A DNA stretch of 64,000 nucleotides. Origin: Bordetella parapertussis. GTDB lineage: Bacteria > Pseudomonadota > Gammaproteobacteria > Burkholderiales > Burkholderiaceae_B. The stretch spans positions 62,001 to 126,000 of the forward strand of contig CAMBFI010000006.1 in NCBI GenBank assembly GCA_945865935.1. Direction: 5' to 3'. Numbering within the stretch: position 1 is the stretch's first letter; each line of letters begins with the position of its first letter. Below the pieces are notes generated by a model. It saw only the letters and a list, made by a program, of their open reading frames with translations. It did no database searches and had not been told where the DNA came from. Made by a program: the position numbers and the translations under genes. Of this stretch, positions 11,175-24,278 are shown one piece after another.

Positions 11175-11624
11175 TTACTGAGTCCCGGGGAGAGACAACT
11201 TGCGACGCAGCACTCTCAGCACACTGCCTAAGAGTGGGATCTGTTCATATACTTGCGCGGCGGCATCCCAGTAATCTTGATGCAACACAATCAACCCATC
11301 GGTGTCGAGTTCGAATTGTGTACAGCCCTCAATGATCTGACCACGGCCTCGGCAAGTAAAAGAAAATGTCCATGTCATAAAGCCGATCGGGCCTGTTGAA
11401 GCCATCCGTGTCACAACAAACCTTGGCTGATCGAGCGTCTTAAACATGTGTTCGAATACTTGTCTGACTAACGCAACCCCTTGCAGATCATTAAATGGAT
11501 CGACAAATCTGGTACGACTTGCATACAAGGATTCGATTTCGTTGAGTGACTCAGACGTTAACTGCTCGAACCATCGAGCAATCAATTGAAACCGCTCAGT
11601 TTGATCAGGCATAGAATCAGACAT
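11175..11624 (-). CDS. SnoaL-like / nuclear transport factor 2 fold protein
   Basis: This 149-residue protein is the last gene of the leftward lipid operon. I chose ATG 11624 (MSDSMPDQ), which overlaps the SDR stop as ATGA. The pattern FQLIARWFEQLTSESLNEIESLYASRTRFVDPFND, then a beta-rich half with FMTWTFSFTCRG and LIVLHQDYWDAAAQVYEQIPLLG, is the SnoaL/NTF2 cone-shaped fold. Relatives include small isomerases, hydrolases and ligand-binding proteins, so catalysis cannot be inferred. Similar SnoaL genes accompany CFA-synthase/DUF1365 clusters in other proteobacteria (from memory). Confidence 0.82.
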   Translation of the reverse strand: MSDSMPDQTERFQLIARWFEQLTSESLNEIESLYASRTRFVDPFNDLQGVALVRQVFEHMFKTLDQPRFVVTRMASTGPIGFMTWTFSFTCRGRGQIIEGCTQFELDTDGLIVLHQDYWDAAAQVYEQIPLLGSVLRVLRRKLSLPGTQ

Positions 11625-12412
11625 CACAACCCCGTCATTTTGTGTAGTAAAGGAAACCGCAAACGATAAGGGAGTCGACTCACTAAACGCAAGGCGCACG
11701 CAAAGCCCTTCGGAAAGTTTATCTCAAACTGTCCACGCTCAAGTCCAGACACAATATGTGCTGCCGCACGCTGCGCAGAGATCAAACTTGGCATGCGGAA
11801 ATCATTTGCAGCCGTCATGGGCGTTTCAACGAAGCCCGGATTAATCAAGTAAACGTTCAAGCCCTTGGGGGCGAGCTCAAAATAGAGCGTCTCCACCAAA
11901 TTATTTAAGGCGGCCTTCGTCGCACCATAAATCAACGCCCGTGGTAACCCGGTGTATGCGGAAATGCTAGCAATGCATGCAATACCACCGGACTGGCGCG
12001 CTAAAAAGTAAGGCACTAGACAAGCTAGCGCTCGGTACACACTTACGACGTTTAGTTCGAAACTTTTTTCAACCTGCTCAATGTTGAGCTCCCAGCTATT
12101 GGTGGGATCGTAACGCGCGGCACCTAAGATCACGAGATCGATATGACCCATCGCGGCCACGGTAGCATCCAGCACAGACGGCCAAATTTTTGGATCTATA
12201 CAATCGAATGCAACAACCGATGCCTTGGGATACTGCACAGCAAACTCGCGAAGTTCTGCCTCACGCCTAGCGGATAGCGTGACGTAGGCACCCGCATCTA
12301 AAAGCGCTTTCGCAAGTGCCAAACCAATCCCACTCGATGCACCGACGATCCACACTCTTTTTTCGCGCCAATCATGAATAGGTTGATTCAACGGCGACCA
12401 TAAATTTCTCAT
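11624..12412 (-). CDS. Short-chain dehydrogenase/reductase
   Basis: This 262-residue NAD(P)-dependent oxidoreductase has the Rossmann motif VGASSGIGLALAKAL at about 23-37, a catalytic Ser region ASISAYTGLP, and the active-site YGATKAALNNL (Tyr-x3-Lys). The C-terminus is basic and hydrophobic (FACALRLVSRLPYRLRFPLLHKMTGL), which suggests a membrane-associated or lipid substrate. It sits 11 bases after the DUF3833 lipoprotein gene and overlaps the SnoaL-like gene by an ATGA, placing it in the same operon. The substrate is unknown; by context it is a modified fatty acyl chain. Confidence 0.9.
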   Translation of the reverse strand: MRNLWSPLNQPIHDWREKRVWIVGASSGIGLALAKALLDAGAYVTLSARREAELREFAVQYPKASVVAFDCIDPKIWPSVLDATVAAMGHIDLVILGAARYDPTNSWELNIEQVEKSFELNVVSVYRALACLVPYFLARQSGGIACIASISAYTGLPRALIYGATKAALNNLVETLYFELAPKGLNVYLINPGFVETPMTAANDFRMPSLISAQRAAAHIVSGLERGQFEINFPKGFACALRLVSRLPYRLRFPLLHKMTGL

Positions 12413-12423
12413 TGTTAACCGCC

Positions 12424-12957
12424 TCAGGTCCGCTTCTTGAAAAACAGCGTCACCTCACCGAGGTCGACGCCAAACTTTGACATCACCGATCGATTCATCA
12501 TGGACTGCTCATCGAGTAGCCACATCCAGTCGTCGAAATTAACTAAATATTCTTTCCCGTCAACGGGCAAACGTAGAACATATTTCCAATGCAAGGCATT
12601 ACCCGCCACTTTACCGATCGCGACTCCCACCACATCATCAGCCGTTCCTTGCCAGGTGCCGTCGGGCTGACGCTTGAGCGTCCAGACTCTACGCTGGGTC
12701 TCGCCGTCAGAGTAGGTGAAACGCTCATCGAGTACGCCCTCAGATGGACTCTTCCACGTACCCTCGATCACCACATGAAAACGGCGAGCAACCGTGCCGC
12801 CACGTTTCTGAAAGATTCCCCAAGCGTCAAGCGTGCCATTAAAATATGTTGATAACTCCAACTCTGGTTTTTCAGACGCATAGTGATTAACTTCTACACT
12901 GCCACACGCGGTCAAGAGGGCCGCACTCATTGAAGCGATGAGAACTTTAAGTTTCAT
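12424..12957 (-). CDS. DUF3833 lipoprotein
   Basis: This 177-residue protein begins with a lipoprotein signal, MKLKVLIASMSAALLTACGS, whose lipobox LTAC places the lipidated cysteine at residue 18. The mature part is beta-rich (ELSTYFNGTLDAWGIFQKRGGTVARRF, DGTWQGTADDVVGVA, GNALHWKYVLRLPVDGKEY) and fits DUF3833. It overlaps the MFS gene by four bases. It would sit at the periplasmic face of a membrane, the side opposite the soluble enzymes of the operon. Its function is unknown. Confidence 0.88.
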   Translation of the reverse strand: MKLKVLIASMSAALLTACGSVEVNHYASEKPELELSTYFNGTLDAWGIFQKRGGTVARRFHVVIEGTWKSPSEGVLDERFTYSDGETQRRVWTLKRQPDGTWQGTADDVVGVAIGKVAGNALHWKYVLRLPVDGKEYLVNFDDWMWLLDEQSMMNRSVMSKFGVDLGEVTLFFKKRT

Positions 12958-14231
12958 GACGATTGTTCCTTGCTCGAGAGTTCGTCACCGACAGACGCCG
13001 GTGGCGGGAAGCGAAGCAGCACTAGCGCTGCAATGGCTTTTAAAAAAATGGGAAGGCCAACATACAAGACAATCAGAGGTGTCGCTGTCGCTGGGGTACC
13101 AGGCTGGTAATCAAACCAGCTCAGCAAGGGCAATGTCACACCCGCCGCGATAGCCAAGGCGAGCTTGCCAAGTAACACCCAAACGCCTATGTATAGACCC
13201 GTGTTATGCCGCTGGTCGCTAGGAATCGCGTCTGCCAACATCGCACCTGGTAAAGCTATATCGGCACCCAGCGCAGCGCCGGCCATCAAACACACAAAAC
13301 TATACAGCCAGACATCGCCTTCACCCACCGCACTCGCACCGAATAACGCAAGCGCGGCGAGCACACTGCCACTCAACCACGCCAAACGCTTCCCGTAACG
13401 ATCGGCCAGCGCCACCCAAAGCGGCAGTGCAAGAAGACCGGCGATAAAATAAGTGCCCAAAAATAAACCCGCATCTTTCGGTCGCTGCACAACGTCACTA
13501 ATAAAAAACAGCACCAATGTGGCAGGCACTGCAACAGCGACGGCGTTCAATAGATAAAAACCATACACCTGCCTAACAGGCCGATGCGCAAGCGCAGCTC
13601 GCCATCCCGCTGTGAGGGCTGTCAGTTTCTCTTTAGGTCGTGGTGACCATAATAGGGTCGTCGCTAAGCCGATGAACAACGACGCTGCAAACAGGTAGGC
13701 AAACAACCGATAGCCTGGCCCTGCCCCGTATTCCTCGACCAATACGACAGGGACCACGGAAGCTAAAATCACACCGAGCAATCCAAGCCCTTCGCGCCAG
13801 GCGACAACACGCGAGCGAATCAGCGGTTCATCACTTAGCCGCGTACCCCACGTGACATAGCAAATACTCAAGAGACTATGGGCCGCATAAAGTAGAACTA
13901 GGCAGCAGGTCAGCCACACCATCAAGCCGAGATGTGACCAGTCGGGGGGTGAGAACAGCATGACAAAGCTTACAGCTAGCAGGATGCTCCCAAATACCGA
14001 CAGTACAGACCAACCAAACCGCGACGCTTGGAACGCATCAACGACCCGCCCTAAAAATGGATCCTGCGCGGTATCCAACAACCGAGTGCAGAATAATATC
14101 GCTCCCAAGGCGGCTAAATTCAAGCCGAGGTTTTCACCGTAGTACTTGGGCGAAATCATATAAATTGGCATCAAGGCCATCGCGAGCGGTAACCCGAGAG
14201 CCCCATACGCGGCTAGACGATAAGGGCTCAC
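12954..14231 (-). CDS. MFS transporter in the lipid-modification operon
   Basis: This 425-residue protein is almost entirely hydrophobic, with about 12 predicted helices. The beginning YRLAAYGALGLPLAMALMPIYMISPKYYGENLGL and the loop TRLLDTAQDPFLGRVVDAF, with Asp/Arg-rich cytosolic turns, resemble the glycoside-pentoside-hexuronide (MFS_2) subgroup. It overlaps both neighbours by four bases (chalcone-isomerase-like upstream, DUF3833 downstream). Similar transporters occur in CFA-containing clusters in other proteobacteria. Given that context a lipid or lipid-precursor substrate is more likely than a sugar, but this is inference. Confidence 0.88.
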   Translation of the reverse strand: MSPYRLAAYGALGLPLAMALMPIYMISPKYYGENLGLNLAALGAILFCTRLLDTAQDPFLGRVVDAFQASRFGWSVLSVFGSILLAVSFVMLFSPPDWSHLGLMVWLTCCLVLLYAAHSLLSICYVTWGTRLSDEPLIRSRVVAWREGLGLLGVILASVVPVVLVEEYGAGPGYRLFAYLFAASLFIGLATTLLWSPRPKEKLTALTAGWRAALAHRPVRQVYGFYLLNAVAVAVPATLVLFFISDVVQRPKDAGLFLGTYFIAGLLALPLWVALADRYGKRLAWLSGSVLAALALFGASAVGEGDVWLYSFVCLMAGAALGADIALPGAMLADAIPSDQRHNTGLYIGVWVLLGKLALAIAAGVTLPLLSWFDYQPGTPATATPLIVLYVGLPIFLKAIAALVLLRFPPPASVGDELSSKEQSS

Positions 14232-14746
14232 GGCTTAACACCTAACAACGCCTGCCTCAGTGATGGCTCGCTTGTGCGGGGATCCAACCAAATTGCAAAG
14301 AATGCACGCGCTAGATTGTCATCAATGCGCCCCGTTAATTTACCTTGATGGTAAAAGGTCGCTCCCTCTGCGGGCTGATACACCCCTGTGAGCGTGTCGC
14401 CCGGGGCGACATCGGGCAATACACGGGCCAACTGATCTCGCCATTGTGGATGCGCACCAATCGGCACACCGAGCTTTGCCATTTCGTCCAGCGATGCCTG
14501 AACAATCCGAGCACCGTCAATCGACCGCTGATAGGTCAGGGACAACGCAAACGGCAGATGCGGCACGTAACGTCCGCTAGGCGCCCAAAGGCGTGCCTCA
14601 TACACGCGAAAACCAAAGCGAGAGAACTGGCCGCGACCGACCTCCCCGACCTCAGGAATTCCTGCAGGAGGCTCGGCTGCACTCGCACTTGGCCACAACA
14701 AGAACGAGCAAGCAAAAGATAGTGCTAAGCGTGTGATAAGACCCAT
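14228..14746 (-). CDS. Exported chalcone-isomerase-fold protein
   Basis: This 172-residue protein has a clear Sec signal (MGLITRLALSFACSFLLWPSASA, cleavage near 23-24). The mature part matches bacterial chalcone-isomerase-like proteins: FGFRVYEARLWAPSG, LSLTYQRSIDG, SLDEMAKLG, WRDQLARVLPDVAPGDTLTGVY, GATFYHQGKL and AFFAIWLDPRT...LRQALLG. It shares this entire order with the cytosolic 18042-18590 protein, so they are paralogues at different cellular sites. True chalcone isomerase activity is unlikely in such proteins; the related fungal/bacterial fold binds fatty acids. It overlaps the CFA-like gene by 22 bases and the MFS gene by 4. Confidence 0.85.
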   Translation of the reverse strand: MGLITRLALSFACSFLLWPSASAAEPPAGIPEVGEVGRGQFSRFGFRVYEARLWAPSGRYVPHLPFALSLTYQRSIDGARIVQASLDEMAKLGVPIGAHPQWRDQLARVLPDVAPGDTLTGVYQPAEGATFYHQGKLTGRIDDNLARAFFAIWLDPRTSEPSLRQALLGVKP

Positions 14747-15954
14747 TGTTTTACGTCCGTACGTCCATAACGAAAGCCTACTTCGCAGTAAGCGAGATAC
14801 ATTTTCCAGATGCGTATGAACGCAGTGTCAAATCCTTGCTCAGAGATCGCAGCGGTGTTGCGATCAAACGCGATCCCCCACCGCCTCAGCGTCTCGGCGT
14901 AGTCCAATCCAAAGGAAAACGATGCGCGCACTGCTAAAGCGGCAGCCGAGCTCTCTTTTGCGAAACGACTGGCAGAGGGCAACATTCCACCAGGAAAAAT
15001 GTACTGTTGGATAAAGTCTGTTCCATGCCGGTAGGCATCAAACTTAGCTTCAGAAATATCGATTGCTTGAATCACCGCCCTACCATTTGGCTTCAAACAT
15101 CGGGCAAGGACTTTGAAATAGCTTGGCCAGTGCAGCAAGCCGACTGCTTCGAACATTTCAATCGAGACAATGTGATCGAACTGTTCAGGGATGTCACGAT
15201 AGTCTTGCAGCCTAAGCTCCACCATCGAACTCAGCCCCGCTTGCGCCATCCGCGCCAGACCGTACTCGAGTTGAGCGTCTGAGATAGTGACGCCGACAAC
15301 TTTCAGGCCCCGGCGTGCGGCACGCTCGGCGAAACCACCCCAGCCACAACCGATTTCCAGAATGGTCTGGCCAGGCTGCGCATCGAGTTGATCCAGAATG
15401 TGGTCGTACTTTTGGTTCTGCGCAACTTCGAGGTCAAGCGACAGATCACCGGCAAAGTATGCCGAGGAATAAGACATACTCGGATCGAGCCACAGCTGAT
15501 AGAAACTGTTCCCCACATCATAGTGACTCAAAATGTTACGACGACTGCCAGACCGACTGTTGTCCTTAAACACCCAATGGGACAGGCGTTTCAATAGCAA
15601 CGCCCACCACTGTCCGTCAACAGCCTGTGCCACTTGTTGATTCAACAATGCGATAGAAAACAGTGCGACTAAATCGTCGCACCCGATCCACCCGCGACGC
15701 AAGCTCTCGGCAAAGCCCACATCCCCTTGTCGCAAAATAAGTGTCGCCGCTCGCCAATCGTGCACATCTAACTGCGCTTCATGCACGTCTCTTTGCGTAT
15801 CTTCTGTACGCTGACCAAAACTGCGCACGAGTCCATCAGGCTGCACCAAGCGCAAACATCCGACCGAGATTCGCTCAAGCATTCGAATCAAAATTCGACC
15901 AGCTAAGGGCACCGCGCGACGCGATACTCCAACGGGATGATCATTCAGCCTCAT
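14725..15954 (-). CDS. Cyclopropane-fatty-acyl-phospholipid synthase family methyltransferase
   Basis: This 409-residue SAM-dependent enzyme acts on unsaturated acyl chains of membrane phospholipids. Landmarks are GWIGCDDLVALF, RNILSHYDVGNSFYQLWLD, the tyrosine motif MSYSSAYF, the SAM-binding ILEIGCGWGGFAERAA near 195-210, VSIEMFEAVG, and the C-terminal MYLAYCEVGFRYGRTD. The family contains true cyclopropane synthases and others, such as UfaM, that methylate acyl chains en route to furan fatty acids. The presence of DUF1365, an amine-oxidase-like flavoprotein and DUF3833 suggests the second kind of system, but that is inference. It overlaps DUF1365 by four bases. Confidence 0.93.
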   Translation of the reverse strand: MRLNDHPVGVSRRAVPLAGRILIRMLERISVGCLRLVQPDGLVRSFGQRTEDTQRDVHEAQLDVHDWRAATLILRQGDVGFAESLRRGWIGCDDLVALFSIALLNQQVAQAVDGQWWALLLKRLSHWVFKDNSRSGSRRNILSHYDVGNSFYQLWLDPSMSYSSAYFAGDLSLDLEVAQNQKYDHILDQLDAQPGQTILEIGCGWGGFAERAARRGLKVVGVTISDAQLEYGLARMAQAGLSSMVELRLQDYRDIPEQFDHIVSIEMFEAVGLLHWPSYFKVLARCLKPNGRAVIQAIDISEAKFDAYRHGTDFIQQYIFPGGMLPSASRFAKESSAAALAVRASFSFGLDYAETLRRWGIAFDRNTAAISEQGFDTAFIRIWKMYLAYCEVGFRYGRTDVKQWVLSHA

Positions 15955-16757
15955 CCTCGGCCTCCTGCATCATTTGTCGTGGTTTCGCGTTCAGGTAAAG
16001 GTGGAACGGAATGATAGCGAGCGCCTTGCCGCCAAAGTTTAAACGCTTGTAGGTGAATACGCATGATGACTCCCACTGTCATCATCGGCATACCCAGCAG
16101 AAAGCGAAACAATGCACGAGTGGAAAACTGACCGTGTCTCGTCACAATCGCCGTTCGCAGTAATGGTTCTTCCGTGTCTAACGGATCGTGATAGTCAATC
16201 GCTAGCCGATGCAACCCCGCCATACTCGTCGTCCTAAATCGATAACCGCCGCGCACGGCACAAAACGGTGACACATGAAACTCCTTCGCACAACTGAGTT
16301 CGGTGGTATCAGTAATTTCAGCCATCCCAGGCGCGACCAGAACGTACTGATGGCGTTGACCAAAGGTATTGTTCACTTCAGCCACCAACACACGGAGTGA
16401 GCCGGCTTCATCATGGACAAACCAGAAGCTCACTGGGTTAAAAACATAACCAAAAACACGCGGAAAACACTGTAGCCAGACAGCGCCTGTCCGAATATCT
16501 ATTTGACTGTTTGTCAGTAGCTCACTGAGCCAATGCTGTAAATTACCCCCATCGCGCGCGCCATGGTCTGCAGAGAAAAAACTGACAGGTCGACGTTTCT
16601 CAACGCCAAAGAGCCAGCTATTAAAGCTAGCCAGCTCGGGCAAGCGATCAATGCGTAATCTCAAGCAGAAGACCCGATACACAAAACGATGCACGAAAGG
16701 TCTTAAGCGAGCGTGCATCACTCGGCCAGCGCATAATTCAATTCCAGCATTAGTCAT
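15951..16757 (-). CDS. DUF1365 family protein
   Basis: This 268-residue protein has the DUF1365 pattern: AGRVMHARLRPFVHRFVYRVFCLRL at the N-terminus, RPVSFFSADHGARDGG in the middle, then VFGYVFNPVSFWFVHDEAG and FHVSPFCAVRGGYRFR. It always travels with amine-oxidase-like flavoproteins and CFA-type enzymes (COG3496 next to COG2907 and COG2230), as here. No catalytic mechanism is established to my knowledge. It overlaps the flavoprotein gene by 8 bases and the CFA-like gene by 4, so the three are translationally coupled. Confidence 0.92.
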   Translation of the reverse strand: MTNAGIELCAGRVMHARLRPFVHRFVYRVFCLRLRIDRLPELASFNSWLFGVEKRRPVSFFSADHGARDGGNLQHWLSELLTNSQIDIRTGAVWLQCFPRVFGYVFNPVSFWFVHDEAGSLRVLVAEVNNTFGQRHQYVLVAPGMAEITDTTELSCAKEFHVSPFCAVRGGYRFRTTSMAGLHRLAIDYHDPLDTEEPLLRTAIVTRHGQFSTRALFRFLLGMPMMTVGVIMRIHLQAFKLWRQGARYHSVPPLPERETTTNDAGGRG

Positions 16758-18045
16758 AAACCGCCCCCCAGGGTATCTCTACCCCAAAGTCACGCACGAC
16801 TCGCAGTGCTGACTTCAAACCGTCTTCGTGGAAACCATAGCCGGCCCAAGCACCACAAAACCAAACACGATCTAAGCCTTGGATAGAGGGAAGTCTCGTT
16901 TGTGCTTGAGCAGCCGCAGCATCGAGAATCGGATGCTCGTAGGTCAGTTCCTTCACCACCAAGTCAGGTAACGGTTCGATATGTGGATTGAGTGTCACGA
17001 TGACGGGCTGAGTAAAAGGCAAGGCCTGCAACTGATTCAGCAGATAACTGACTGCGACGGGTTGCTCTTGGCTCGCACCACCGAGAGAAAGATAGTTCCA
17101 AGCTGACCATACTTTCTTTCGCCGGGGTAACAGCCGAATATCTGTATGCAATACCGCCCTATTCTCTTGATAACGGAAGGCTTGGAGTACCTCTCTTTCT
17201 TTTGGAGCTGCATCGAGCAGGGCCAAGCTTGTCGGTGCATGACAGGCCAGGACCACCGCATCAAAATTCTCTACACCGCTCGCGTTATGGACCGCCACAG
17301 AATCCGGGAGCCGCTGAATGCGGTGCACCGGGGCATTGAGTCGCACGTCAGACAACTGCTCGACCAATTTCTGAACATAGCACCGCGAACCACCCACAAC
17401 TGTCTTCCATTGAGGGCGCTCTTGAATCTGCAGCAAGCGATGATTCAAGCAAAACGTTAGAAAGTGAGCTGCCGGGAATCCTAGGATGTCTTTGACCGGC
17501 GCAGACCAGATGGCGGCAGCCATCGGTAACAAATACCAATCGCGCATCGTTTGACCAAAGCGCTCTCGATCCAAGAGCTGCGCAAGCGAAATCGGATTTG
17601 AGTGTGTCTCGGTCAGGTAGCGTTGTGCGTTCTTATTGAAACGCAAAATATCCCGCAACATTGCGAGAAACGCAGGCCGAATGAGGTTGCGGCGCTGAGC
17701 AAATACTGTCGATAAATCGGTACCTGCCCATTCAATATCCGGCTCTGCAATCGACACGCCAAAAGACATATCGCTCGCATGCACGTCGACCTTCAAGTAC
17801 CTGAAGAGCTCGATGAGGTTGGGATAGGTTAAGTCGTTATGCACGAGAAACCCTGTATCCACCGGATGTGTCATGCCGTTTAACGTGACATCCACCGTAT
17901 TGGAATGACCGCCAAAATAACTCCCCGCCTCGATCAGGCTCACCTGATAGCTATCCTTGAGCAACCAGGCCGCAGCAAGTCCGGAGATACCAGAACCCAC
18001 CACGGCAATTCGGGCGCCACGCGGGGGAACGCTAGGCTGGCTCAC
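16750..18045 (-). CDS. FAD-dependent amine-oxidase-like oxidoreductase (COG2907)
   Basis: This 431-residue flavoprotein has an N-terminal FAD-binding IAVVGSGISGLAAAWLL (GxGxxG at 17-22), then YFGGHSNTVDVTLNGMTHPVDTGFLVHND, which is characteristic of COG2907 proteins. The C-terminus carries DRVWFCGAWAGYGFHEDGLKSALRV, the second FAD contact. Despite the family name no amine substrate is implied; these proteins cluster with DUF1365 and CFA-type methyltransferases and probably oxidise or desaturate acyl chains. It overlaps the upstream chalcone-isomerase-like gene by 4 bases. Confidence 0.92.
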   Translation of the reverse strand: MSQPSVPPRGARIAVVGSGISGLAAAWLLKDSYQVSLIEAGSYFGGHSNTVDVTLNGMTHPVDTGFLVHNDLTYPNLIELFRYLKVDVHASDMSFGVSIAEPDIEWAGTDLSTVFAQRRNLIRPAFLAMLRDILRFNKNAQRYLTETHSNPISLAQLLDRERFGQTMRDWYLLPMAAAIWSAPVKDILGFPAAHFLTFCLNHRLLQIQERPQWKTVVGGSRCYVQKLVEQLSDVRLNAPVHRIQRLPDSVAVHNASGVENFDAVVLACHAPTSLALLDAAPKEREVLQAFRYQENRAVLHTDIRLLPRRKKVWSAWNYLSLGGASQEQPVAVSYLLNQLQALPFTQPVIVTLNPHIEPLPDLVVKELTYEHPILDAAAAQAQTRLPSIQGLDRVWFCGAWAGYGFHEDGLKSALRVVRDFGVEIPWGAVYD

Positions 18046-18590
18046 GACAGCACCTCTCTAAGCGGAGAGGTCTGTGGTTGTCCTAACAGAGCCTCGCGCA
18101 ATGCGCTCGCGCGCGTGGCTGGGTCAAGCCAAATAGAAAGAAATGCCGAGGCGAACGCTGGCTCTTGAATTGCCCCTAGTGGTGCATGGTCTGAATAAAA
18201 GTTTGCACCACGCGTTGGATCAAAATACCCGACTAACCGATCGCCCGCTTTCACATCCGGGATGATCTGCGCGAGCGCGTCACGCCACGCTTGGCCGCGG
18301 TCAGAGTGTTCGGGATGCAGTCGCAGCATCTCATCGATCGAAATCAAAATAGTCTGCTCTTTTGAAAGCGTTCGTAAGTAACTCAAATCAAGAATCGCGG
18401 GTAGTTCCTCTTCAAACCTTCCGGACTGCGTATATAGACTCGCCCAATAACACCGGAAGACCGTCCAGACGAAGATGCCTCTGCCGCATAATTGCCAGGC
18501 ATTTCCATGCGTCTGGACGACGCACTCGGGGAGTGCCGTCTGGTACGCCTGCGTTGCCGCCGCTAGTTTCGGATTGATGGGAGTGGTCAT
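18042..18590 (-). CDS. Cytosolic chalcone-isomerase-fold protein, first gene of lipid operon
   Basis: This 182-residue protein has no signal peptide. It shares the motif order of the exported protein at 14228-14746: GRGIFVWTVFRCYWASLYT, LDLSYLRTLSK, SIDEMLRL, WRDALAQIIPDVKAGDRLVGYFDP, GANFYSD and AFLSIWLDPAT...LREALLG. It is the promoter-proximal gene of the nine-gene leftward operon and faces the divergent TetR gene across 123 bases. Its fold family includes fatty-acid-binding members, which suits the lipid context. The exact role is unknown. Confidence 0.85.
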   Translation of the reverse strand: MTTPINPKLAAATQAYQTALPECVVQTHGNAWQLCGRGIFVWTVFRCYWASLYTQSGRFEEELPAILDLSYLRTLSKEQTILISIDEMLRLHPEHSDRGQAWRDALAQIIPDVKAGDRLVGYFDPTRGANFYSDHAPLGAIQEPAFASAFLSIWLDPATRASALREALLGQPQTSPLREVLS

Positions 18591-18644
18591 ATTTGTGTTC
18601 GTAAGACTTTTAAGTAATAACTATACGTTCGTTTATTTATACAT

Positions 18645-18670
18645 ATTAGTCTATTTTATGACTAATTAGT
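18645..18670. promoter_or_regulatory. A/T-rich inverted repeats between lipid operon and TetR gene
   Basis: ATTAGTC (18645-18651), 8 bases, then GACTAAT (18660-18666) is a perfect 7-base inverted repeat. It runs into ACTAATTAGT (18661-18670), a perfect 10-base palindrome. The sites lie centrally in the 123-base divergent intergenic region, where a TetR-type dimer would be expected to bind. Confidence 0.5.
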
Positions 18671-18675
18671 ATAAA

Positions 18676-18701
18676 CTTAGGTTCATGCACGTGCACCTAA
18701 G
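18676..18701. promoter_or_regulatory. Palindromic candidate operator before the TetR gene
   Basis: CTTAGGT (18676-18682) and ACCTAAG (18695-18701) form a perfect inverted repeat with a 12-base spacer, and TGCACGTGCA (18686-18695) inside it is a perfect 10-base palindrome. The repeat ends directly at the Shine-Dalgarno of the TetR gene, so binding would block its own transcription or translation. It is a candidate autoregulatory operator. Confidence 0.5.
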
Positions 18702-18713
18702 AGGTGAAATCCC

Positions 18714-19349
18714 ATGGTTCAAACAAGTCTCGCGTCCAACTCCGCTGCCCCAAAAAAACACTCGTTTAAACAGCAGCAGCTGTTGTTTAGAGAAGCGGCC
18801 ATCCTCGATACGGTCAACCAATTGCTGTCGCAAAAGGGGTTTGATCTTATGACGATGGATGAGGTCGCCGCAAATGTAGGCATTGCTAAGGCAAGTCTGT
18901 ATAAACACTTCGCCTCGAAAGAGGCGTTGGCCGCGGCGTCGATGGCGCGTCTACTTGAACACGCACTTGAGGTGATAGCCAACCTGCCAGAGGCGGACTC
19001 ATCGGTCGACAAACTCAAAGCGGTCGTCAGATGGTCCGTGAGCACCCATCTGCAAGGCGTGATGCCCCTACTCCCCTCAACGCGCTCCACGATTCAGACG
19101 GCCCTGCAGAACCACGCGCCGTATATGGACTGTTTAGGGCGTTTGATCGAGCAACTGGGTGCGTGGATCCAGCAGGCACAGTCGAGCGGTGAGTTGTCAG
19201 CAGATTTGCCCGGTGAAGTCATGCTCTACACAATTTTTGCCCGCTCATGCGATCCGGTCGCCGATTTTTTAAAACAAGGCGGTGCCTTCACGGATCAAGA
19301 AATTACAGAGATGATTGTCAGGACAACCTTCCAAGGAATGATGGGATAA
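18714..19349 (+). CDS. TetR/AcrR family transcriptional regulator
   Basis: This 211-residue regulator starts at ATG 18714, with AGAGGTG 7 bases upstream. After a polar leader of about 20 residues, the DNA-binding domain reads ILDTVNQLLSQKGFDLMTMDEVAANVGIAKASLYKHFASKEAL (helix-turn-helix about 43-70). The remainder is the helical ligand-binding and dimerisation domain. It is transcribed divergently from the lipid operon and is the obvious candidate regulator of it. The ligand may be a fatty acyl compound, as for several TetR proteins of lipid genes, but this is only inferred. Confidence 0.92.
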   Translation: MVQTSLASNSAAPKKHSFKQQQLLFREAAILDTVNQLLSQKGFDLMTMDEVAANVGIAKASLYKHFASKEALAAASMARLLEHALEVIANLPEADSSVDKLKAVVRWSVSTHLQGVMPLLPSTRSTIQTALQNHAPYMDCLGRLIEQLGAWIQQAQSSGELSADLPGEVMLYTIFARSCDPVADFLKQGGAFTDQEITEMIVRTTFQGMMG

Positions 19350-19416
19350 ATCAGACCTGCTTACCTGTGAAGACCTGCTACCTCAGCTAGAATCGATCTC
19401 TTTTGTCGGATCTGCT

Positions 19417-20331
19417 ATGTGGTTCAAAAATCTTAAGCTTTTTCGCCTCTCACCTGAGTGGGCTTGGACCTTCGATCAGATCGAAGACTTTTTAAATAAA
19501 GAACGATTTGCCCAGGCTGACGCCAGCGCAGCTAGCTCTGTCGGTTGGGTCGCTGTGCGTGAGCAAGACCAACGTCTGGCTTACCCTATCGGTAAACAAA
19601 TCATTTGTGCTTTTCGCTCAGAAAAAAAACTACTCCCAGCGTCAGTCATCAACCAGTTTGTTAAAGCGCGCGCTCAAGATCTGGAGGAACAACAGGGGTT
19701 TAAGGCTGGCCGTAAACAGCGCCGCGATCTCAAAGAGGAAGTCACAAGCAGCCTTCTGCCGCGCGCCTTTAGCCTGATCCGTGACACACGGGTATGGATT
19801 GACCCGATCAACCACTGGCTTGCCATCGACACCGCTTCCACATCGAAAGCAGAAGAGGTCATCTCCGCGTTAGGCAAGGCCATTTACCCATTCCCCGTCG
19901 AGCCAATACAAGTGACGATTAGCCCGGCGGTTGCCATGACCACCTGGATCTCGGCAGGCGCGCCTCCCAGTCATTTCACCATTGATCAAGACGCCGAGTT
20001 TCGCGCGGGTGGGGATAAAGCGGCGGCTATCCGATATGTCAAGCATGTGCTCGACTCCGAAGACATCGACAAACATATCAAGAACGGTAAGCAATGCACA
20101 CGCTTAGCGCTCACCTGGAATGATCGCGTGTCGTTCGTACTGACCGAAAATTTAGATATCAAAAGAGTGGCGCCGCAGGATGTCCTCGATGAGACCGAAC
20201 AGTCCGCCATCGATCATGAGGCCGAAAATTTCGATAGCGACATGACCTTAATGTGCGCGGAGCTCAATCAATTACTCAGCGCCCTCCTGAATGCTCTAGA
20301 AGAAAAAACAACGATCCAAAAGGTGAAGTGA
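19417..20331 (+). CDS. rdgC: Recombination-associated protein RdgC
   Basis: RdgC is a nucleoid-associated ring-shaped dimer that binds double-stranded DNA and restrains RecA-promoted exchange. The 304 residues match the family (E. coli 303). The N-terminus MWFKNLKLFRLSPEWAW, the GWVAVREQDQRLAYPIGKQIICAFRSEKKLLPASVI segment, the CRxxR-like region KAGRKQRRDLKEEVTSSLLPRAF, and the C-terminal TRLALTWNDRVSFVLTENLDIKRV are diagnostic. It is followed after one base by a small gene of unknown function. Its presence is interesting beside a RecA with an altered P-loop. Confidence 0.95.
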   Translation: MWFKNLKLFRLSPEWAWTFDQIEDFLNKERFAQADASAASSVGWVAVREQDQRLAYPIGKQIICAFRSEKKLLPASVINQFVKARAQDLEEQQGFKAGRKQRRDLKEEVTSSLLPRAFSLIRDTRVWIDPINHWLAIDTASTSKAEEVISALGKAIYPFPVEPIQVTISPAVAMTTWISAGAPPSHFTIDQDAEFRAGGDKAAAIRYVKHVLDSEDIDKHIKNGKQCTRLALTWNDRVSFVLTENLDIKRVAPQDVLDETEQSAIDHEAENFDSDMTLMCAELNQLLSALLNALEEKTTIQKVK

Positions 20332-20332
20332 T

Positions 20333-20653
20333 ATGGACCTCATGATCCAAAGTAGTGTTCAAGAAACAATTGAGGGCGGGCTCGTGCTCGGCATTACGAT
20401 CGAAGACCTCCACGTGCAGGCCTACATCGTCATCTCAAAAATTGACATCTATGTCGTGGAAAAAATCATTCCGCAAACAATCTTTGAAAGCAATGCGCAA
20501 ATCCACGTTGCTGGAATCGCGAAAGGAACGGATGTCACCGAAGAAATCGTGCAGATTCTTGAAAACATGGACAACGGTGATGTCGTCGCTTTTTTATGCG
20601 AAGACGCTGTCACGTACGGCGAAGCCCTCGCCGTACTAGGTCTCAAGCACTAA
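20333..20653 (+). CDS. Hypothetical 106-residue protein behind rdgC
   Basis: This frame starts one base after the rdgC stop, with AAGGTGAAG as ribosome-binding site; translation may begin at Met1 or Met4 (MIQSSVQE). It is a small acidic protein with alternating beta-like segments (GGLVLGITIEDLHVQAYIVI, KIDIYVVEKIIPQTIF) and a helix EEIVQILENMDNGDVVAFLCEDAVTYGEALAVLGL. No signal peptide or membrane helix is visible. I do not recognise a family. Tight spacing argues for co-expression with RdgC. Confidence 0.75.
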   Translation: MDLMIQSSVQETIEGGLVLGITIEDLHVQAYIVISKIDIYVVEKIIPQTIFESNAQIHVAGIAKGTDVTEEIVQILENMDNGDVVAFLCEDAVTYGEALAVLGLKH

Positions 20654-20658
20654 AGGCT

Positions 20659-21999
20659 TCAGATTTTTTTTCGCAACTGCATGAGCAGCAGTGCCACAAT
20701 ACCAAGCCCCATGACCCATAAGGACACATCCACCGCATTTTTACTCACAGCATAGGTAATGCTCGAGTAGGTTAAATAGGCGCAAGTCAGGCAAAACAAA
20801 ATGGGTGTAAACGGATAGAGAGGAACCTTGAAGGGACGATCTGCCGACGGATCTTTCACTCGCATCACGAACAAGGATACGCCCACCAAAAACAAGAAAA
20901 ACCAAAACACAGGTGCCGTGAATTCCACCATTGCACCAAAACCATCAGTCTGCCACAAACCAAAAATGACCAGCACGAGACTAATAGCGGACTGCACCCA
21001 TAACGCTCGCGTCGGGGATCCTCGACCACCCTCCCAATGCCCCATAAATGACAAGGCGGGCCAATCTTTTCCCAACGCATAATTGGTACGTGCGCCCACA
21101 ATCATGGTTGCATTGATGCTTGTCAGCGCTGCCATTGCCACAAACACACCGAGTACACGTTCACCCGCCGGGCCAAACGCCTGTCCCATCAAGTCAGCGG
21201 CTGCCGCGTTACTGCTCGCCAACCCCTTCAAACCCAAGCCTGAAAGTAAGGCGAAATTCACAACCACATAAATAATGGTCAAAACAAAAATACTAATGAC
21301 GATGACCGGGACGATCGCTCTGCGTCCGCCGTGCACCTCAGCAGAAATATATGCCGCTTCATTCCAGCCACCGTACGTCAGCAGCACGAACACCATCGCC
21401 AAACCAAACATCCCGAGACTTGGTGTTGATGAAAAATAAGCAGGCGATGCAGGCGCATCACTTGCAACATAAAACCCAGCCACTGCCACTAGAATCAACC
21501 CAAACACCTCGGTTAGCGTCAGCAGCGTCTGCACCCAAGACGAAGCATAAATGCCGATCAAGTTCACGATTGTCAAAACAAGTACAACACCAATCGCCCA
21601 AATCGCGGTCGAGTACGGCCCGAGGTTTAGCGCCTTACTCATATAGTCGCCAAACACGAAGGCTAGCAAGGCAATGGATCCCGTATTGATGACCATTGCC
21701 TTGGCCCACGCGTAAAGAAACGAAATCGGCTTACCGAAGGCGCGCGCTAGAAAATGATAATCGCCCCCTGCATGCGGGTAGGTCGTCGCGAGTTCTGCAT
21801 AGCACAGCGCCCCCGCGAGCGAAATAAGCCCACCTGCCAACCACGCTATGAGCAGCCACCCCGCGTCTCCCGTTACCCCCGCCACCATCGAGGGGGTTTT
21901 GAAGATACCTGCACCAATAACAATGCCAACAATAATTGCGATCGCACTGAAAGGTGATAGTCTTTTTGAAGGTTCGTTATTGTTTGCAGGCGCGTTCAT
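20659..21999 (-). CDS. Amino acid permease, APC superfamily
   Basis: This 446-residue inner-membrane transporter has about 12 helices. The first helix carries the unwound substrate-binding motif IAIIVGIVIGAGIFKTPS, and the second YAELATTYPHAGGDYHFLARAFG is the consensus APC segment. An internal EVHGGRRAIVPVIVISIF loop is typical of LAT-like members. It is convergent with the small gene behind rdgC (5 bases apart). Substrate specificity cannot be told from sequence alone. Confidence 0.92.
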   Translation of the reverse strand: MNAPANNNEPSKRLSPFSAIAIIVGIVIGAGIFKTPSMVAGVTGDAGWLLIAWLAGGLISLAGALCYAELATTYPHAGGDYHFLARAFGKPISFLYAWAKAMVINTGSIALLAFVFGDYMSKALNLGPYSTAIWAIGVVLVLTIVNLIGIYASSWVQTLLTLTEVFGLILVAVAGFYVASDAPASPAYFSSTPSLGMFGLAMVFVLLTYGGWNEAAYISAEVHGGRRAIVPVIVISIFVLTIIYVVVNFALLSGLGLKGLASSNAAAADLMGQAFGPAGERVLGVFVAMAALTSINATMIVGARTNYALGKDWPALSFMGHWEGGRGSPTRALWVQSAISLVLVIFGLWQTDGFGAMVEFTAPVFWFFLFLVGVSLFVMRVKDPSADRPFKVPLYPFTPILFCLTCAYLTYSSITYAVSKNAVDVSLWVMGLGIVALLLMQLRKKI

Positions 22000-22019
22000 A
22001 GAGGATCAAACTTTTGTTG

Positions 22020-22877
22020 TTAACTACGGGTACCCGAAACTTCGTACAAGGGCGAATTCTCGAGCACATTGCCTGTCAAGGCGTTGCCCTTGATTTCGAC
22101 ATCAAAAATACGTGATTGACCGTTCTGGTCAACGAAGCTGAACTTCAAACGATTGCCCGTTAGGACTCCACCAAGAATGGGCTGTGACTTACCCTTCATC
22201 GTGAGCGTACCGCCCACTTTTTGGTAACGCTGAGTTAATTCAAGAACGTCGCCCTGACCACCATCGATGCCTTTGATTGTCCATTTGCCCGCTGCATTGC
22301 CGGGAACGACCCAAAAGTAACCCTGGGTGTAGCCCGTCCCAATCACTTGATCAGGTTCCCAGTCACCCATATTGAAGGAGTTGGTCGCGACACGGGTGCC
22401 AGGGGCCATCTTAAGAATCGTAGGACGTAACTTCAAATTGAGATCAGGCAACAAATACATCGTCAGCACATTGGCCTTGGAGAAGTCCTCCACAAAAATG
22501 TCACCGTGGATAATCTTGACTTTGTCTGAGACACCAGCGCGTTCCGCATTGCGGGTTGCAAGCGCTGCCATATCTTTGTTGTATTCAATACCGACTGATC
22601 GGGCACCATAATTTTTTGCTGCGGCAATCGCGATCTTCCCATCACCCGCCCCCAGATCAAACACAAGATCATTCGGTCCAACATTCGCAGCCTTGAGCAT
22701 GGCATCTGCCACGGCATCGTTAGTCGGTACCCAGATCACATCTTTGCCGCTTTGCCCGACGGAGGGCTGATACTTGTCGTCACCCAAGGTCGTGCCATAC
22801 GCAATCTGCGCATAAGCCTGCGTGACGGTTAATCCAAGGGCAAGAGCCGTTGTGGATAGCACTAAACGAATATTCAT
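22020..22877 (-). CDS. Exported class I SAM-dependent methyltransferase with C-terminal beta domain
   Basis: I start at ATG 22877 (MNIRLVLSTTALALGLTVTQ), which has GAGGT about 7 bases upstream and gives a clear Sec signal, cleaved after AYA near residue 23. The mature protein contains a Rossmann methyltransferase core: VFDLGAGDGKIAIAAAKNYG (motif I), SVGIEYNKDM, VKIIHGDIF, and NVLTMYLLPDLNLKLRP. This resembles the FAM173/ANTKMT-like lysine methyltransferases. The last 110 residues are beta-rich (WTIKGIDGGQGDVLELTQ, QPILGGVLTGNRLKFSFVD). A signal peptide is odd because SAM is made in the cytosol; non-catalytic or membrane-tethered function is possible. It is preceded on the same strand by the LLM gene's promoter side (128 bases away). 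Confidence 0.85.
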   Translation of the reverse strand: MNIRLVLSTTALALGLTVTQAYAQIAYGTTLGDDKYQPSVGQSGKDVIWVPTNDAVADAMLKAANVGPNDLVFDLGAGDGKIAIAAAKNYGARSVGIEYNKDMAALATRNAERAGVSDKVKIIHGDIFVEDFSKANVLTMYLLPDLNLKLRPTILKMAPGTRVATNSFNMGDWEPDQVIGTGYTQGYFWVVPGNAAGKWTIKGIDGGQGDVLELTQRYQKVGGTLTMKGKSQPILGGVLTGNRLKFSFVDQNGQSRIFDVEIKGNALTGNVLENSPLYEVSGTRS

Positions 22878-23004
22878 GGTTGACCTCGCTGATCCGTGTG
22901 GAAAGTATGACTGCAGTGTAATTACAAAATCAGAGCGCAAAATTTAGCATTTGGCGGCAAAAAAAACAGCTAATTCTCGTACGGACTTGACGATGGCTTG
23001 AAAA

Positions 23005-24207
23005 TTACTCATCGAGAGGCGATTTGCCGGTGTGGAGCCTCAGCCGCATATGGTCGGGCACATCCTGTCCAGCGTCTGTAAAAGCCTTGCGCAAGGCCCC
23101 CATTTGAGGACCAAAAATGCCGCTGCGATTGTCGCTTGCCCACTGTCTCGAGGTCTGGAGTGTCGTCAGACTCCCTTGAAAACGCGGCATCACCCAGCGC
23201 GCGAAAAGCTCATAGCTCCTTAAGGTCTGCTCGCGTGTGGCCCACTCGTGCGAGCGGAACAATACGGCGCCTGCACCGCCATCGGTAAAAGATAACAGAC
23301 GCTCTATTCCTGCCGCAACGGTCTCGGGCGAACCAACAATGGTTGTCCCCGCCTTCAACCCTTCGGCCAACGGATTCTCGCTGCGCATCGGCGGGCGCCC
23401 CAAGGTTTCACTAAAGTAGCTCAAGGTCTCGAGCCGCTCGCCTTTGCGCACTTCAGCGACAGCCTGCTCATCGTCTTCGGCCACATGGATATTGACGACC
23501 AAGCGCCAGTCATCACGCCGCATTGTCTTCCCGAACTTGGCGGCCTCGGCCTCACCTAGCTTCCATTGTTCAGCCAACTTTTGTGGCCCACCCGGTAAGC
23601 CCGCCCCCAAGGAAATCAAGCCCACGCCATGCTTCGCAGCCGTCAGTACCCCGGAAGGGGTGGTCGAACTTGCCACCGCAACCGGAAAGCCACCTTTGGT
23701 ATACGGCGCAAGATGTAAGCGCGCATCATTGAGTTCGAACCAGTCTGTCTTTAAGTTGACCGGTTCCTCGCAGGAGAGCAAACGCATGATCGCACCCAGC
23801 GACTCGTCCATCATGGGGCGCTGCCGCTCGGCCTGAATTCCCATCATGTAGGCATCCGATACCAAAGCTCCGGGACCGCAGCCCAACATGACACGCCCAC
23901 GCGTCATGTGATCGAGCTGTACAAATCTTTGCGCCACCAGAAACGGATGGTGATAAGGCAGACTTGTCACGCCAGAACCCAACATAATCCGACGTGTTCT
24001 GTCGGCGGCCACGCCAATAAATATCTCTGGCGATGCGATCGTCTCCCACCCGGCTGAATGATGCTCACCGATCCAAGCCTCGTCGTAGCCGAGATGATCC
24101 AGCCATTCGATGAGTTCTAAATCGCGGGCAAGCGCGAGTGTCGGATTGTCCCCTAAGCGATGAAACGGAGCCAAAAAGATTCCGAACCTCAACCCTGCGT
24201 GCGCCAT
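23005..24207 (-). CDS. LLM-class flavin-dependent monooxygenase (limonene-monooxygenase-like)
   Basis: This luciferase-like TIM-barrel enzyme uses reduced flavin and oxygen. ATG 24207 has AGGTG upstream, so I prefer it to a GTG three codons earlier; the product is 400 residues. Visible features are the strand RFGIFLAPFHRLGDNP, GYDEAWIGEHHSAGWETIASPEI, LGSGVTSLPYHHPF, GRVMLGCGPGALVSDAYMMG and the C-terminal ELFARWVMPRFQGS. The EHHSAGWE pattern is like that of limonene monooxygenase and F420/FMN LLM relatives. No flavin reductase gene is adjacent, so reduced flavin must come from elsewhere. The real substrate is unknown. Confidence 0.87.
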   Translation of the reverse strand: MAHAGLRFGIFLAPFHRLGDNPTLALARDLELIEWLDHLGYDEAWIGEHHSAGWETIASPEIFIGVAADRTRRIMLGSGVTSLPYHHPFLVAQRFVQLDHMTRGRVMLGCGPGALVSDAYMMGIQAERQRPMMDESLGAIMRLLSCEEPVNLKTDWFELNDARLHLAPYTKGGFPVAVASSTTPSGVLTAAKHGVGLISLGAGLPGGPQKLAEQWKLGEAEAAKFGKTMRRDDWRLVVNIHVAEDDEQAVAEVRKGERLETLSYFSETLGRPPMRSENPLAEGLKAGTTIVGSPETVAAGIERLLSFTDGGAGAVLFRSHEWATREQTLRSYELFARWVMPRFQGSLTTLQTSRQWASDNRSGIFGPQMGALRKAFTDAGQDVPDHMRLRLHTGKSPLDE

Positions 24208-24278
24208 CAATGTCACCTGTCTTCGTCTTATTTCCCGCTTTTATAGCACGGGGTTACTTATGCAATCCCCTCTATCTC

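What the first reader, a model, noticed from the sequence alone, without database searches (positions are those of the whole stretch)
11175..18590. Nine-gene leftward lipid-modification operon of overlapping genes
From 18590 to 11175 the order is chalcone-isomerase-like, COG2907 flavoprotein, DUF1365, CFA-like methyltransferase, exported chalcone-isomerase-like, MFS, DUF3833 lipoprotein, SDR, SnoaL-like. Seven of eight junctions overlap (4 to 22 bases); the eighth is 11 bases. Related CFA/DUF1365/COG2907 groups sit in ChrR-sigmaE (singlet-oxygen) regulons and furan-fatty-acid systems elsewhere. Here neither sigma factor nor anti-sigma nor photolyase is near; a TetR gene takes that position. 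The mix of cytosolic, membrane and periplasmic parts suggests a route for modifying and then moving or repairing acyl chains.
Basis: partly seen in the sequence, partly recalled or inferred. Interest (0 to 1): 0.65.

Follow-up and report, generated by a model that had tools for sequence, protein, structure and literature searches.

The report
Furan fatty acid operon with TetR
A freshwater bacterium carries, in one nine-gene block, the genes for making furan fatty acids that protect membranes from singlet oxygen, and the switch beside them appears to be a different kind of regulator from those known to control these genes elsewhere.

Summary
In detail: nine same-strand genes, seven of eight junctions overlapping, with a divergent TetR gene. 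Genes 2-3-4 are UfaD, UfaO and UfaM, the enzymes shown elsewhere to make a furan fatty acid, in the order of R. palustris RPA2571-2570-2569. Gene 4 is not a cyclopropane synthase: His266 of E. coli Cfa, a bicarbonate ligand, is Gln here, as in 101 of 101 UfaO-adjacent homologues and 10 of 10 photolyase-linked ones. Genes 6-7-8 parallel R. sphaeroides RSP1089-1088-1087, and parts of the set recur beside ECF-ChrR or MerR-B12 regulators across the phylum. What differs is regulation: no ChrR over its cut-off, no MerR-B12 protein beyond a 30-bit match, and one TetR operator, unique in the genome and conserved in 21 of 25 TetR-type loci against 1 of 93 others. In five relatives a photolyase gene directly follows TetR. 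The genome also holds a rhodopsin gene. The roles of genes 1 and 5-9 stay inferred; gene 7 models as a calycin-like barrel lipoprotein. A new variant of a known kind; the inducer of TetR is the open question.

The parts
18042..18590 (-). Gene 1: chalcone-isomerase-like protein without signal peptide (PF16036), paralogue of gene 5
   Evidence: Pfam 49 bits, cut-off 27. Detected in 12 of 21 same-family TetR-type loci and in none of the 8 MerR-type, 2 ChrR-type and 9 other same-family loci, nor in the 18 same-order loci.
16750..18045 (-). Gene 2: UfaD-type flavoprotein (COG2907), fatty acyl desaturase
   Evidence: Amine-oxidase Pfam 71.9 bits; same order relative to UfaO and UfaM as in R. palustris (PMC7380195); a UfaD and a UfaO match are both present in 118 of 118 fetched loci, which were chosen by UfaO.
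15951..16757 (-). Gene 3: UfaO (DUF1365), O2-dependent furan-forming enzyme
   Evidence: PF07103 at 239.9 bits; the only match in the genome; order as RPA2570 (PMC7380195).
14725..15954 (-). Gene 4: UfaM-class SAM methyltransferase of acyl chains, not a cyclopropane synthase
   Evidence: CMAS 278.8 bits; E. coli Cfa Cys139 is Ser and His266 is Gln here; below the NCBIfam cut-offs for CFA synthases (259 against 400 bits for PRK11705); only CMAS match over the cut-off in the genome.
14228..14746 (-). Gene 5: exported chalcone-isomerase-like protein
   Evidence: PF16036 36.2 bits; N-terminal signal-peptide-like stretch, by eye.
12954..14231 (-). Gene 6: MFS_2 / GPH-type transporter, counterpart of RSP_1089
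   Evidence: PF13347 202 bits; RSP_1089 is annotated as GPH-family symporter in PMC7074977 (table passage).
12424..12957 (-). Gene 7: DUF3833 lipoprotein, calycin-like barrel, probable counterpart of RSP_1088
   Evidence: PF12915 231.3 bits; LTAC lipobox by eye; model pLDDT 95.8; best natural-protein fold matches BFA1 Z 15.6, OssO 15.1, nitrobindin about 14, FABPs about 10.
11624..12412 (-). Gene 8: short-chain dehydrogenase, counterpart of RSP_1087
   Evidence: PF00106 132.1 bits; SDR beside UfaD-UfaO also in ChrR-linked loci.
11175..11627 (-). Gene 9: SnoaL-like protein
   Evidence: PF12680 53 bits; ATG start at 11627 preferred, giving a 4-base overlap.
18714..19349 (+). Divergent TetR-family regulator
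   Evidence: PF00440 52.8 bits, cut-off 24; the 26 best named-genome relatives (58% identity or more, L191-L216) all lie divergent from gene 1 or UfaD.
18640..18671 (.). Candidate TetR operator, on the - strand TACTAATTAGTCATAAAATAGACTAATATGTA: two similar sites 20 bp centre to centre
   Evidence: Only place in the genome with up to 2 mismatches; motif conserved in TetR-type loci and not in other types.

Best explanation
This is a furan-fatty-acid and photo-oxidative-protection operon. UfaM (gene 4) methylates a cis-vaccenoyl chain of a phospholipid, UfaD (gene 2) introduces a second double bond, and UfaO (gene 3) uses O2 to close the furan ring, which then scavenges singlet oxygen in the membrane. 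Genes 5-9 (and gene 1) are the accessory set that travels with this pathway; most likely they bind, move or clear acyl chains or their oxidation products across the envelope. A divergent TetR protein binds a paired operator in the shared intergenic region and represses the operon until a ligand or oxidation signal releases it. Shown by sequence: gene content, order, the UfaM active-site signature, no ChrR over cut-off and no MerR-B12 protein found in a 97.4% complete genome, conserved operator. Inferred: the product in this organism, repression, the inducer, and the role of genes 1 and 5-9.
For: Families and order. [quoted passage not shown] palustris (PMC7380195, passages). Gene 4 signature: Gln at E. 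coli Cfa position 266 in 101 of 101 CMAS nearest to UfaO on its strand, His in the 14 lower-scoring copies and in the second copy of L176 (one search had counted that copy by mistake as 1 His of 103). In ten genomes of family f56 the best CMAS is beside a photolyase and has Ser139/Gln266 in 10 of 10; the 3 second CMAS there have Cys139/His266. ECF-ChrR is linked in 20 of 20 f56 loci, and 10 of these 20 hold genes 2, 3, 6, 7 and 8 together. Operator: best score 12 or more of 16 in 21 of 25 TetR-type loci, against 1 of 15 MerR, 0 of 44 ChrR, 0 of 34 other; one of 119 loci was too short. Unique in the genome. Photolyase gene 24-26 bases after TetR on the same strand in five TetR-type loci (distances between profile matches). 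Host carries a rhodopsin gene followed by carotenoid-type frames (named by eye).
Against: No lipid or transcript data. The operator consensus was first read from some of the loci it was tested on, and the later set shares at least six genomes with the first. Four of 25 TetR-type loci score no better than background. TetR relatives of 48-56% identity in 52 other loci show no operon gene beside them, 3 of these at contig ends, so the TetR subfamily is wider than this job. RSP1087-1089 deletions had no effect on fatty acids (PMC7380195). Two TetR-type loci (L058, L064) also hold an ECF sigma match.
Confidence: 0.78

Rival explanations
1. The operon makes cyclopropane or plain methyl-branched chains for general membrane homeostasis, and the furan link is only by homology.
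For: Gene 4 is a CMAS-family protein and its best solved-structure matches are cyclopropane synthases; UfaM alone gives a methyl-branched chain (PMC7380195).
Against: The bicarbonate-ligand His266 is Gln, CFA-synthase NCBIfam cut-offs are not reached, and UfaD and UfaO are adjacent as in the proven pathway.
Confidence: 0.1
2. The TetR gene is a neighbour that does not control the operon; the operon is read from a light- or sigma-dependent promoter, and the paired motif is only the TetR gene's own autoregulatory site.
For: TetR relatives of 48-56% identity occur without the operon. The motif lies between two divergent genes and cannot by itself say which one is controlled.
Against: No ChrR over its cut-off and no MerR-B12 protein (one 30-bit match to the N-terminal third) is found in the genome. 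TetR sits where ECF-ChrR or MerR-B12 genes sit in sister loci and follows the UfaD tree.
Confidence: 0.15
3. Genes 1 and 5-9 are a separate lipid-trafficking or detoxification module that merely shares the promoter with the furan genes.
For: RSP1087, RSP1088 and RSP1089 were each dispensable for furan synthesis (PMC7380195). Some loci show only UfaD-UfaO-CFA of the nine (L117, L128, L130, L184, L190).
Against: The accessory genes recur with UfaD-UfaO in distant families in different orders, and RSP_1087-1091 rise together in the photo-oxidative stress table of PMC7074977 (passage).
Confidence: 0.3

Closest known systems
RSP_1091-1087 operon with rpoE-chrR, and phrA-ufaM (RSP_2143-2144), Rhodobacter sphaeroides
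   Same: UfaD, UfaO, GPH transporter, lipoprotein-type protein and SDR in that order (annotations in passages of PMC7074977, PMC5507510, PMC7380195).
   Different: Here UfaM is inside the operon, two chalcone-isomerase-like genes and a SnoaL gene are added, no photolyase is in the window, and TetR stands in place of ECF-ChrR.
RPA2571-2570-2569 (ufaD-ufaO-ufaM), Rhodopseudomonas palustris
   Same: Same three genes in the same order; [quoted passage not shown]
   Different: The passages read describe the triad, not the accessory set or a TetR.
pmlR1 / PplR (class II LitR) light regulon of Pseudomonas
   Same: SDR, FAD oxidoreductase and ufaM in a light-induced region with a LitR regulator (PMC9758184, passages).
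   Different: LitR-type regulator and phrB there; neither is in the window here.
MerR-B12 form of the same operon in sister loci (L051, L054, L055, L057, L059, L061, L065, L077)
   Same: Genes 2 to 9 in the same order in 8 of 8.
   Different: Regulator is MerR_1 plus B12-binding (two of the eight checked by Pfam, L059 and L077); no gene 1; TetR operator motif absent from MerR-type loci but for one weak score of 12 in 15.

Membership tests
Furan fatty acid biosynthesis (UfaM-UfaD-UfaO) | All three enzymes encoded | tested here: met
   Genes 4, 2, 3 by Pfam and by order. The R. sphaeroides and R. palustris sequences themselves were not aligned; the link is through family, order and signature.
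Furan fatty acid biosynthesis (UfaM-UfaD-UfaO) | UfaM-type rather than Cfa-type active site (criterion derived here) | tested here: met
   Ser139/Gln266 as in 10 of 10 photolyase-linked homologues; 3 of 3 second copies there have Cys/His.
Furan fatty acid biosynthesis (UfaM-UfaD-UfaO) | Product detected in lipids | not testable with these tools
   Needs GC-MS.
Cyclopropane fatty acid synthase | Bicarbonate ligands Glu239, His266, Tyr317 | tested here: not met
   Glu and Tyr kept, His266 is Gln; ligands as named in PMC11387697 (passage).
Cyclopropane fatty acid synthase | NCBIfam equivalog cut-off | tested here: not met
   259 bits against 400 for PRK11705.
SigmaE-ChrR (ECF11) regulon | ECF-ChrR pair beside the operon, ChrR in the genome | tested here: not met
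   None in the window; best ChrR match in the genome 41.3 bits, cut-off 124.5, positions 85-191 of 216. The genome is 97.4% complete, so a miss is possible. ECF sigma factors were not searched genome-wide.
SigmaE-ChrR (ECF11) regulon | SigmaE promoter upstream | not tested
   No scan with a sigmaE model was run.
LitR/CarH regulon | MerR-B12 regulator | tested here: not met
   Best match in the genome 30.4 bits over residues 13-111 of 321.
TetR-controlled divergent operon | TetR-family protein divergent from the operon | tested here: met
   also in 21 of 40 same-family loci.
TetR-controlled divergent operon | Conserved repeat operator in the shared intergenic region | tested here: met
TetR-controlled divergent operon | Binding and derepression by an inducer | not testable with these tools
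   Needs EMSA and reporter assays.

The most novel reading that the evidence does not exclude
The TetR is a membrane-lipid-damage sensor: a furan fatty acid, its singlet-oxygen breakdown product or another lipid electrophile reacts at or binds near the invariant Cys179 and releases the operator, so that the cell reads photo-oxidation through the lipid itself rather than through ChrR zinc chemistry or a B12 regulator. This would be a third wiring of the same protective genes, with photolyase under the same TetR in some relatives, here in a rhodopsin-bearing bacterium.
Probability: 0.2. Interest if true: 0.7.

Novelty: new variant of a known kind. Interest (0 to 1): 0.45.

Why it matters
Three unrelated regulator types (ECF-ChrR, MerR-B12, TetR) sit on one conserved set of singlet-oxygen protection genes, a natural experiment on how bacteria sense photo-oxidative damage. 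The paired TetR operator and the His-to-Gln signature that separates UfaM-type proteins from cyclopropane synthases are concrete and cheap to test, and the second could be used to correct annotation of proteins now named cyclopropane synthases.

Tried and rejected
Cysteine as proof of a redox switch: Cys179 is invariant in 53 of 53 operon-linked TetR proteins but also in 52 of 52 unlinked relatives, so it does not mark this role. Sigma-70 promoter scan: 3 sites against 6.2 expected, no use. A first operator control used single-base shuffles; dinucleotide shuffles and other locus types followed. Neighbours of 53 TetR relatives without the divergent operon gave no shared lipid gene; the commonest were a universal-stress-like protein (16 loci) and LysR-like regulators (12 and 11 loci) (named by eye). 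The UfaO model (pLDDT 94.7) has no clear solved relative: no Foldseek match at E 0.001, best Z 7.7 (OlmO, 3.9 A over 130), within what models without a clear match give. No solved structure matches gene 5 by sequence at E 0.1; UfaD's only solved relatives at E 1e-5 are entries of the amine oxidase LkcE. Literature: one paper holds two of DUF1365, DUF3833, COG2907 and chalcone isomerase, on Aeromonas riboflavin genes (listing only); by the listing none of the six hits is about a TetR on furan genes; the 8 of 3,462 papers listed have no 'ufam'; of the 24 papers with ufam and bicarbonate the ten listed are on other subjects and the other 14 were not seen. So I know of no print on the operator or the His-to-Gln point within these searches of an open-access library; subscription papers, among them the 2008 core-regulon and 2014 furan papers, were not read. 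PMC3818230 (passage) holds RSP_1089-1087 to be limited to Rhodobacteraceae in its comparison; the loci here show wider counterparts, by profile only.
Full report
Observation. Pfam supports the family names. The divergent TetR gene is real. No ECF sigma, ChrR or photolyase homologue is in the window by profiles built here; the genome's photolyase matches lie on contigs C5 and C19, the window on C6.

What it is. PMC7380195 (passages read) shows that UfaM, UfaD and UfaO turn cis-vaccenoyl chains into 9M5-FuFA, that R. palustris has them as RPA2569, 2571 and 2570, and that 9M5-FuFA disappears on singlet-oxygen exposure, which kills cells unable to make it. That UfaO is the DUF1365 protein and UfaD the COG2907 flavoprotein follows from order, size and the paper's description of UfaD as an FAD-type enzyme; the paper does not use these family names in the passages I saw. 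The window has the same three in the same order. PMC7074977 (table passage) names RSP_1089 a GPH-family symporter and RSP_1087 an SDR; PMC5507510 (table passage) names the RSP_1088 counterpart in P. syringae a lipoprotein. Window genes 6, 7 and 8 fit these in order and kind. I did not align the R. sphaeroides proteins themselves.

Gene 4. Against E. coli Cfa, gene 4 has Ser for Cys139 and Gln for His266, and keeps Glu239, Ile268 and Tyr317. Taking in each fetched locus the CMAS nearest to UfaO on its strand, Gln stands at 266 in 101 of 101; the 14 lower-scoring CMAS copies in these loci, and the second copy of L176, have His (mending, where that second copy had been counted among 103). In ten genomes of family f56, chosen because their furan locus has no CMAS, ECF-ChrR lies beside UfaD-UfaO with MFS and SDR in 10 of 10 and DUF3833 in 7 of 10. 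Their best CMAS is beside a photolyase in 10 of 10 and has Ser139/Gln266 in 10 of 10; three of these genomes hold a second CMAS, all with Cys139/His266. This is the arrangement of RSP_2143 (phrA) and RSP_2144 (ufaM). PMC11387697 (passages) says that the catalytic bicarbonate is held by Glu239, His266 and Tyr317. Loss of the His ligand fits an enzyme that does not close the cyclopropane ring; that step is inference. Gene 4 is the only CMAS match over the cut-off in this genome, so the prediction is furan but no cyclopropane chains.

Distribution. DUF1365 is found in 47 of 151 same-family genomes and 153 of 398 genomes across the phylum, own genome included in both. I read 40 and 78 contexts of these; UfaD and UfaO matches are present in 118 of 118. 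Regulator type in the fetched stretch, same family: TetR 21, MerR-B12 8, ChrR 2, other 9 of 40. Same order: TetR 3, MerR 4, ChrR 3, other 8 of 18. Family f56: ChrR 20 of 20. Remaining phylum loci: ChrR 19, MerR 3, other 18 of 40. 'Other' means none of these three, some with an ECF sigma match alone. Profiles of ChrR, ECF sigma, MerR-B12 and photolyase were made from these loci; one or two members of each were checked by Pfam. No ChrR-type locus has genes 2 to 9 in the window's order (0 of 44); they hold parts of the set. In five TetR-type loci (L048, L053, L056, L060, L063) a photolyase match starts 24-26 bases after the TetR match on the same strand, which ties this branch to light damage.

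Regulator. Of the 80 best TetR relatives in named genomes, the 26 best (58% identity or more, L191-L216) lie divergent from gene 1 or UfaD; L263 (53%) does too; L225 (53%) has UfaD, UfaO and CFA around it in another arrangement; the other 52 (48-56%) show none of these beside them, 3 of them at contig ends. Nearest named organisms are uncultured betaproteobacteria, Zwartia hollandica and Jezberella montanilacus. A tree of UfaD from 59 loci of the same order puts 24 of 25 TetR-type loci in one group of 27 (SH-aLRT 93; quick tree, midpoint root), the MerR-type loci in a group of 22 (94), and the ECF/ChrR loci in a third, weakly supported (47). One exchange of regulator in the ancestor of the TetR group is the simplest reading; one TetR locus (L115) lies in the MerR group, and two loci without a tested regulator and one with ECF alone lie in the TetR group.

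Operator. The intergenic region holds TACTAATTAGT-N10-ACTAATATGTA at 18640-18671, - strand. With the consensus ACTNATNAGT-N10-ACTNATNAGT (16 fixed bases) the best score in the 360 bases upstream is 12 or more in 21 of 25 TetR-type loci, 1 of 15 MerR-type, 0 of 44 ChrR-type and 0 of 34 others (118 of 119 loci, one too short). In the intergenic regions loci, 21 of 26 score 12 or more, against 7 of 520 dinucleotide shuffles; a 27th (L202) was too short. In the whole genome a close form of the pattern with up to two mismatches occurs only here, so this TetR looks like a local regulator with one target region.

Host. The genome has a rhodopsin gene, followed by frames that read as geranylgeranyl synthase, phytoene desaturase, phytoene synthase, lycopene cyclase and a Blh-like protein (named by eye). 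Eight of 21 genomes of the genus, own included, have a rhodopsin match. Life in light makes a singlet-oxygen role plausible.

Accessory genes. Gene 7 models with high confidence (pLDDT 95.8) as a ten-stranded calycin-like barrel behind a lipobox. The top fold match is a designed barrel (Z 15.8); natural ones are BFA1 (15.6, 3.2 A, 140 residues), OssO (15.1, 2.5 A, 133), a DUF3598 protein (14.9), nitrobindin mutants (about 14) and fatty-acid-binding proteins (about 10). That suits a hydrophobic ligand in the envelope but shows no function. Single deletions of RSP1087-1089 left the fatty acids unchanged, so the accessory genes act after or beside synthesis. A carrier, clearance or repair role for furan oxidation products is my best guess.

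Verdict. A furan-fatty-acid operon of known kind, in a full form, with a TetR wiring not found in the papers searched (listings). The inducer is unknown.

Noticed in passing
G000:C18 about 18869-25190 (L290:5870-12191), outside the window: Rhodopsin gene followed by crtE-, crtI-, crtB-, crtY- and blh-like frames: a complete-looking rhodopsin photosystem in the window's genome (names by eye except the rhodopsin).
   Followed up: partly
L114, L116, L122, L129: Small genomes of 1.7-2.1 Mb in the same order (genus g48) carry a reduced UfaD-UfaO-CFA-SDR set with no regulator of the tested types in the fetched stretch.
   Followed up: no
L217-L224, L226-L262, L264-L270: TetR relatives 48-56% identical to the window's TetR, with the same invariant Cys, lie away from the furan genes, in 16 loci near a universal-stress-like gene; in L217 two photolyase-type matches share the locus.
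   Followed up: partly
L042-L047: Same-family loci with UfaD-UfaO-CFA, a second CMAS with His266 (6 of 6) and an ECF sigma match (6 of 6); in four (L043, L044, L045, L047) a desaturase-like gene ends 6 bases before the UfaD match.
   Followed up: partly
G000:C14:49131-49781: Two partial matches to the ChrR profile, well below the family cut-off.
   Followed up: no
window about 18676-18701: A second inverted repeat, CTTAGGT-N12-ACCTAAG, lies between the operator and the TetR start; conservation not tested.
   Followed up: no
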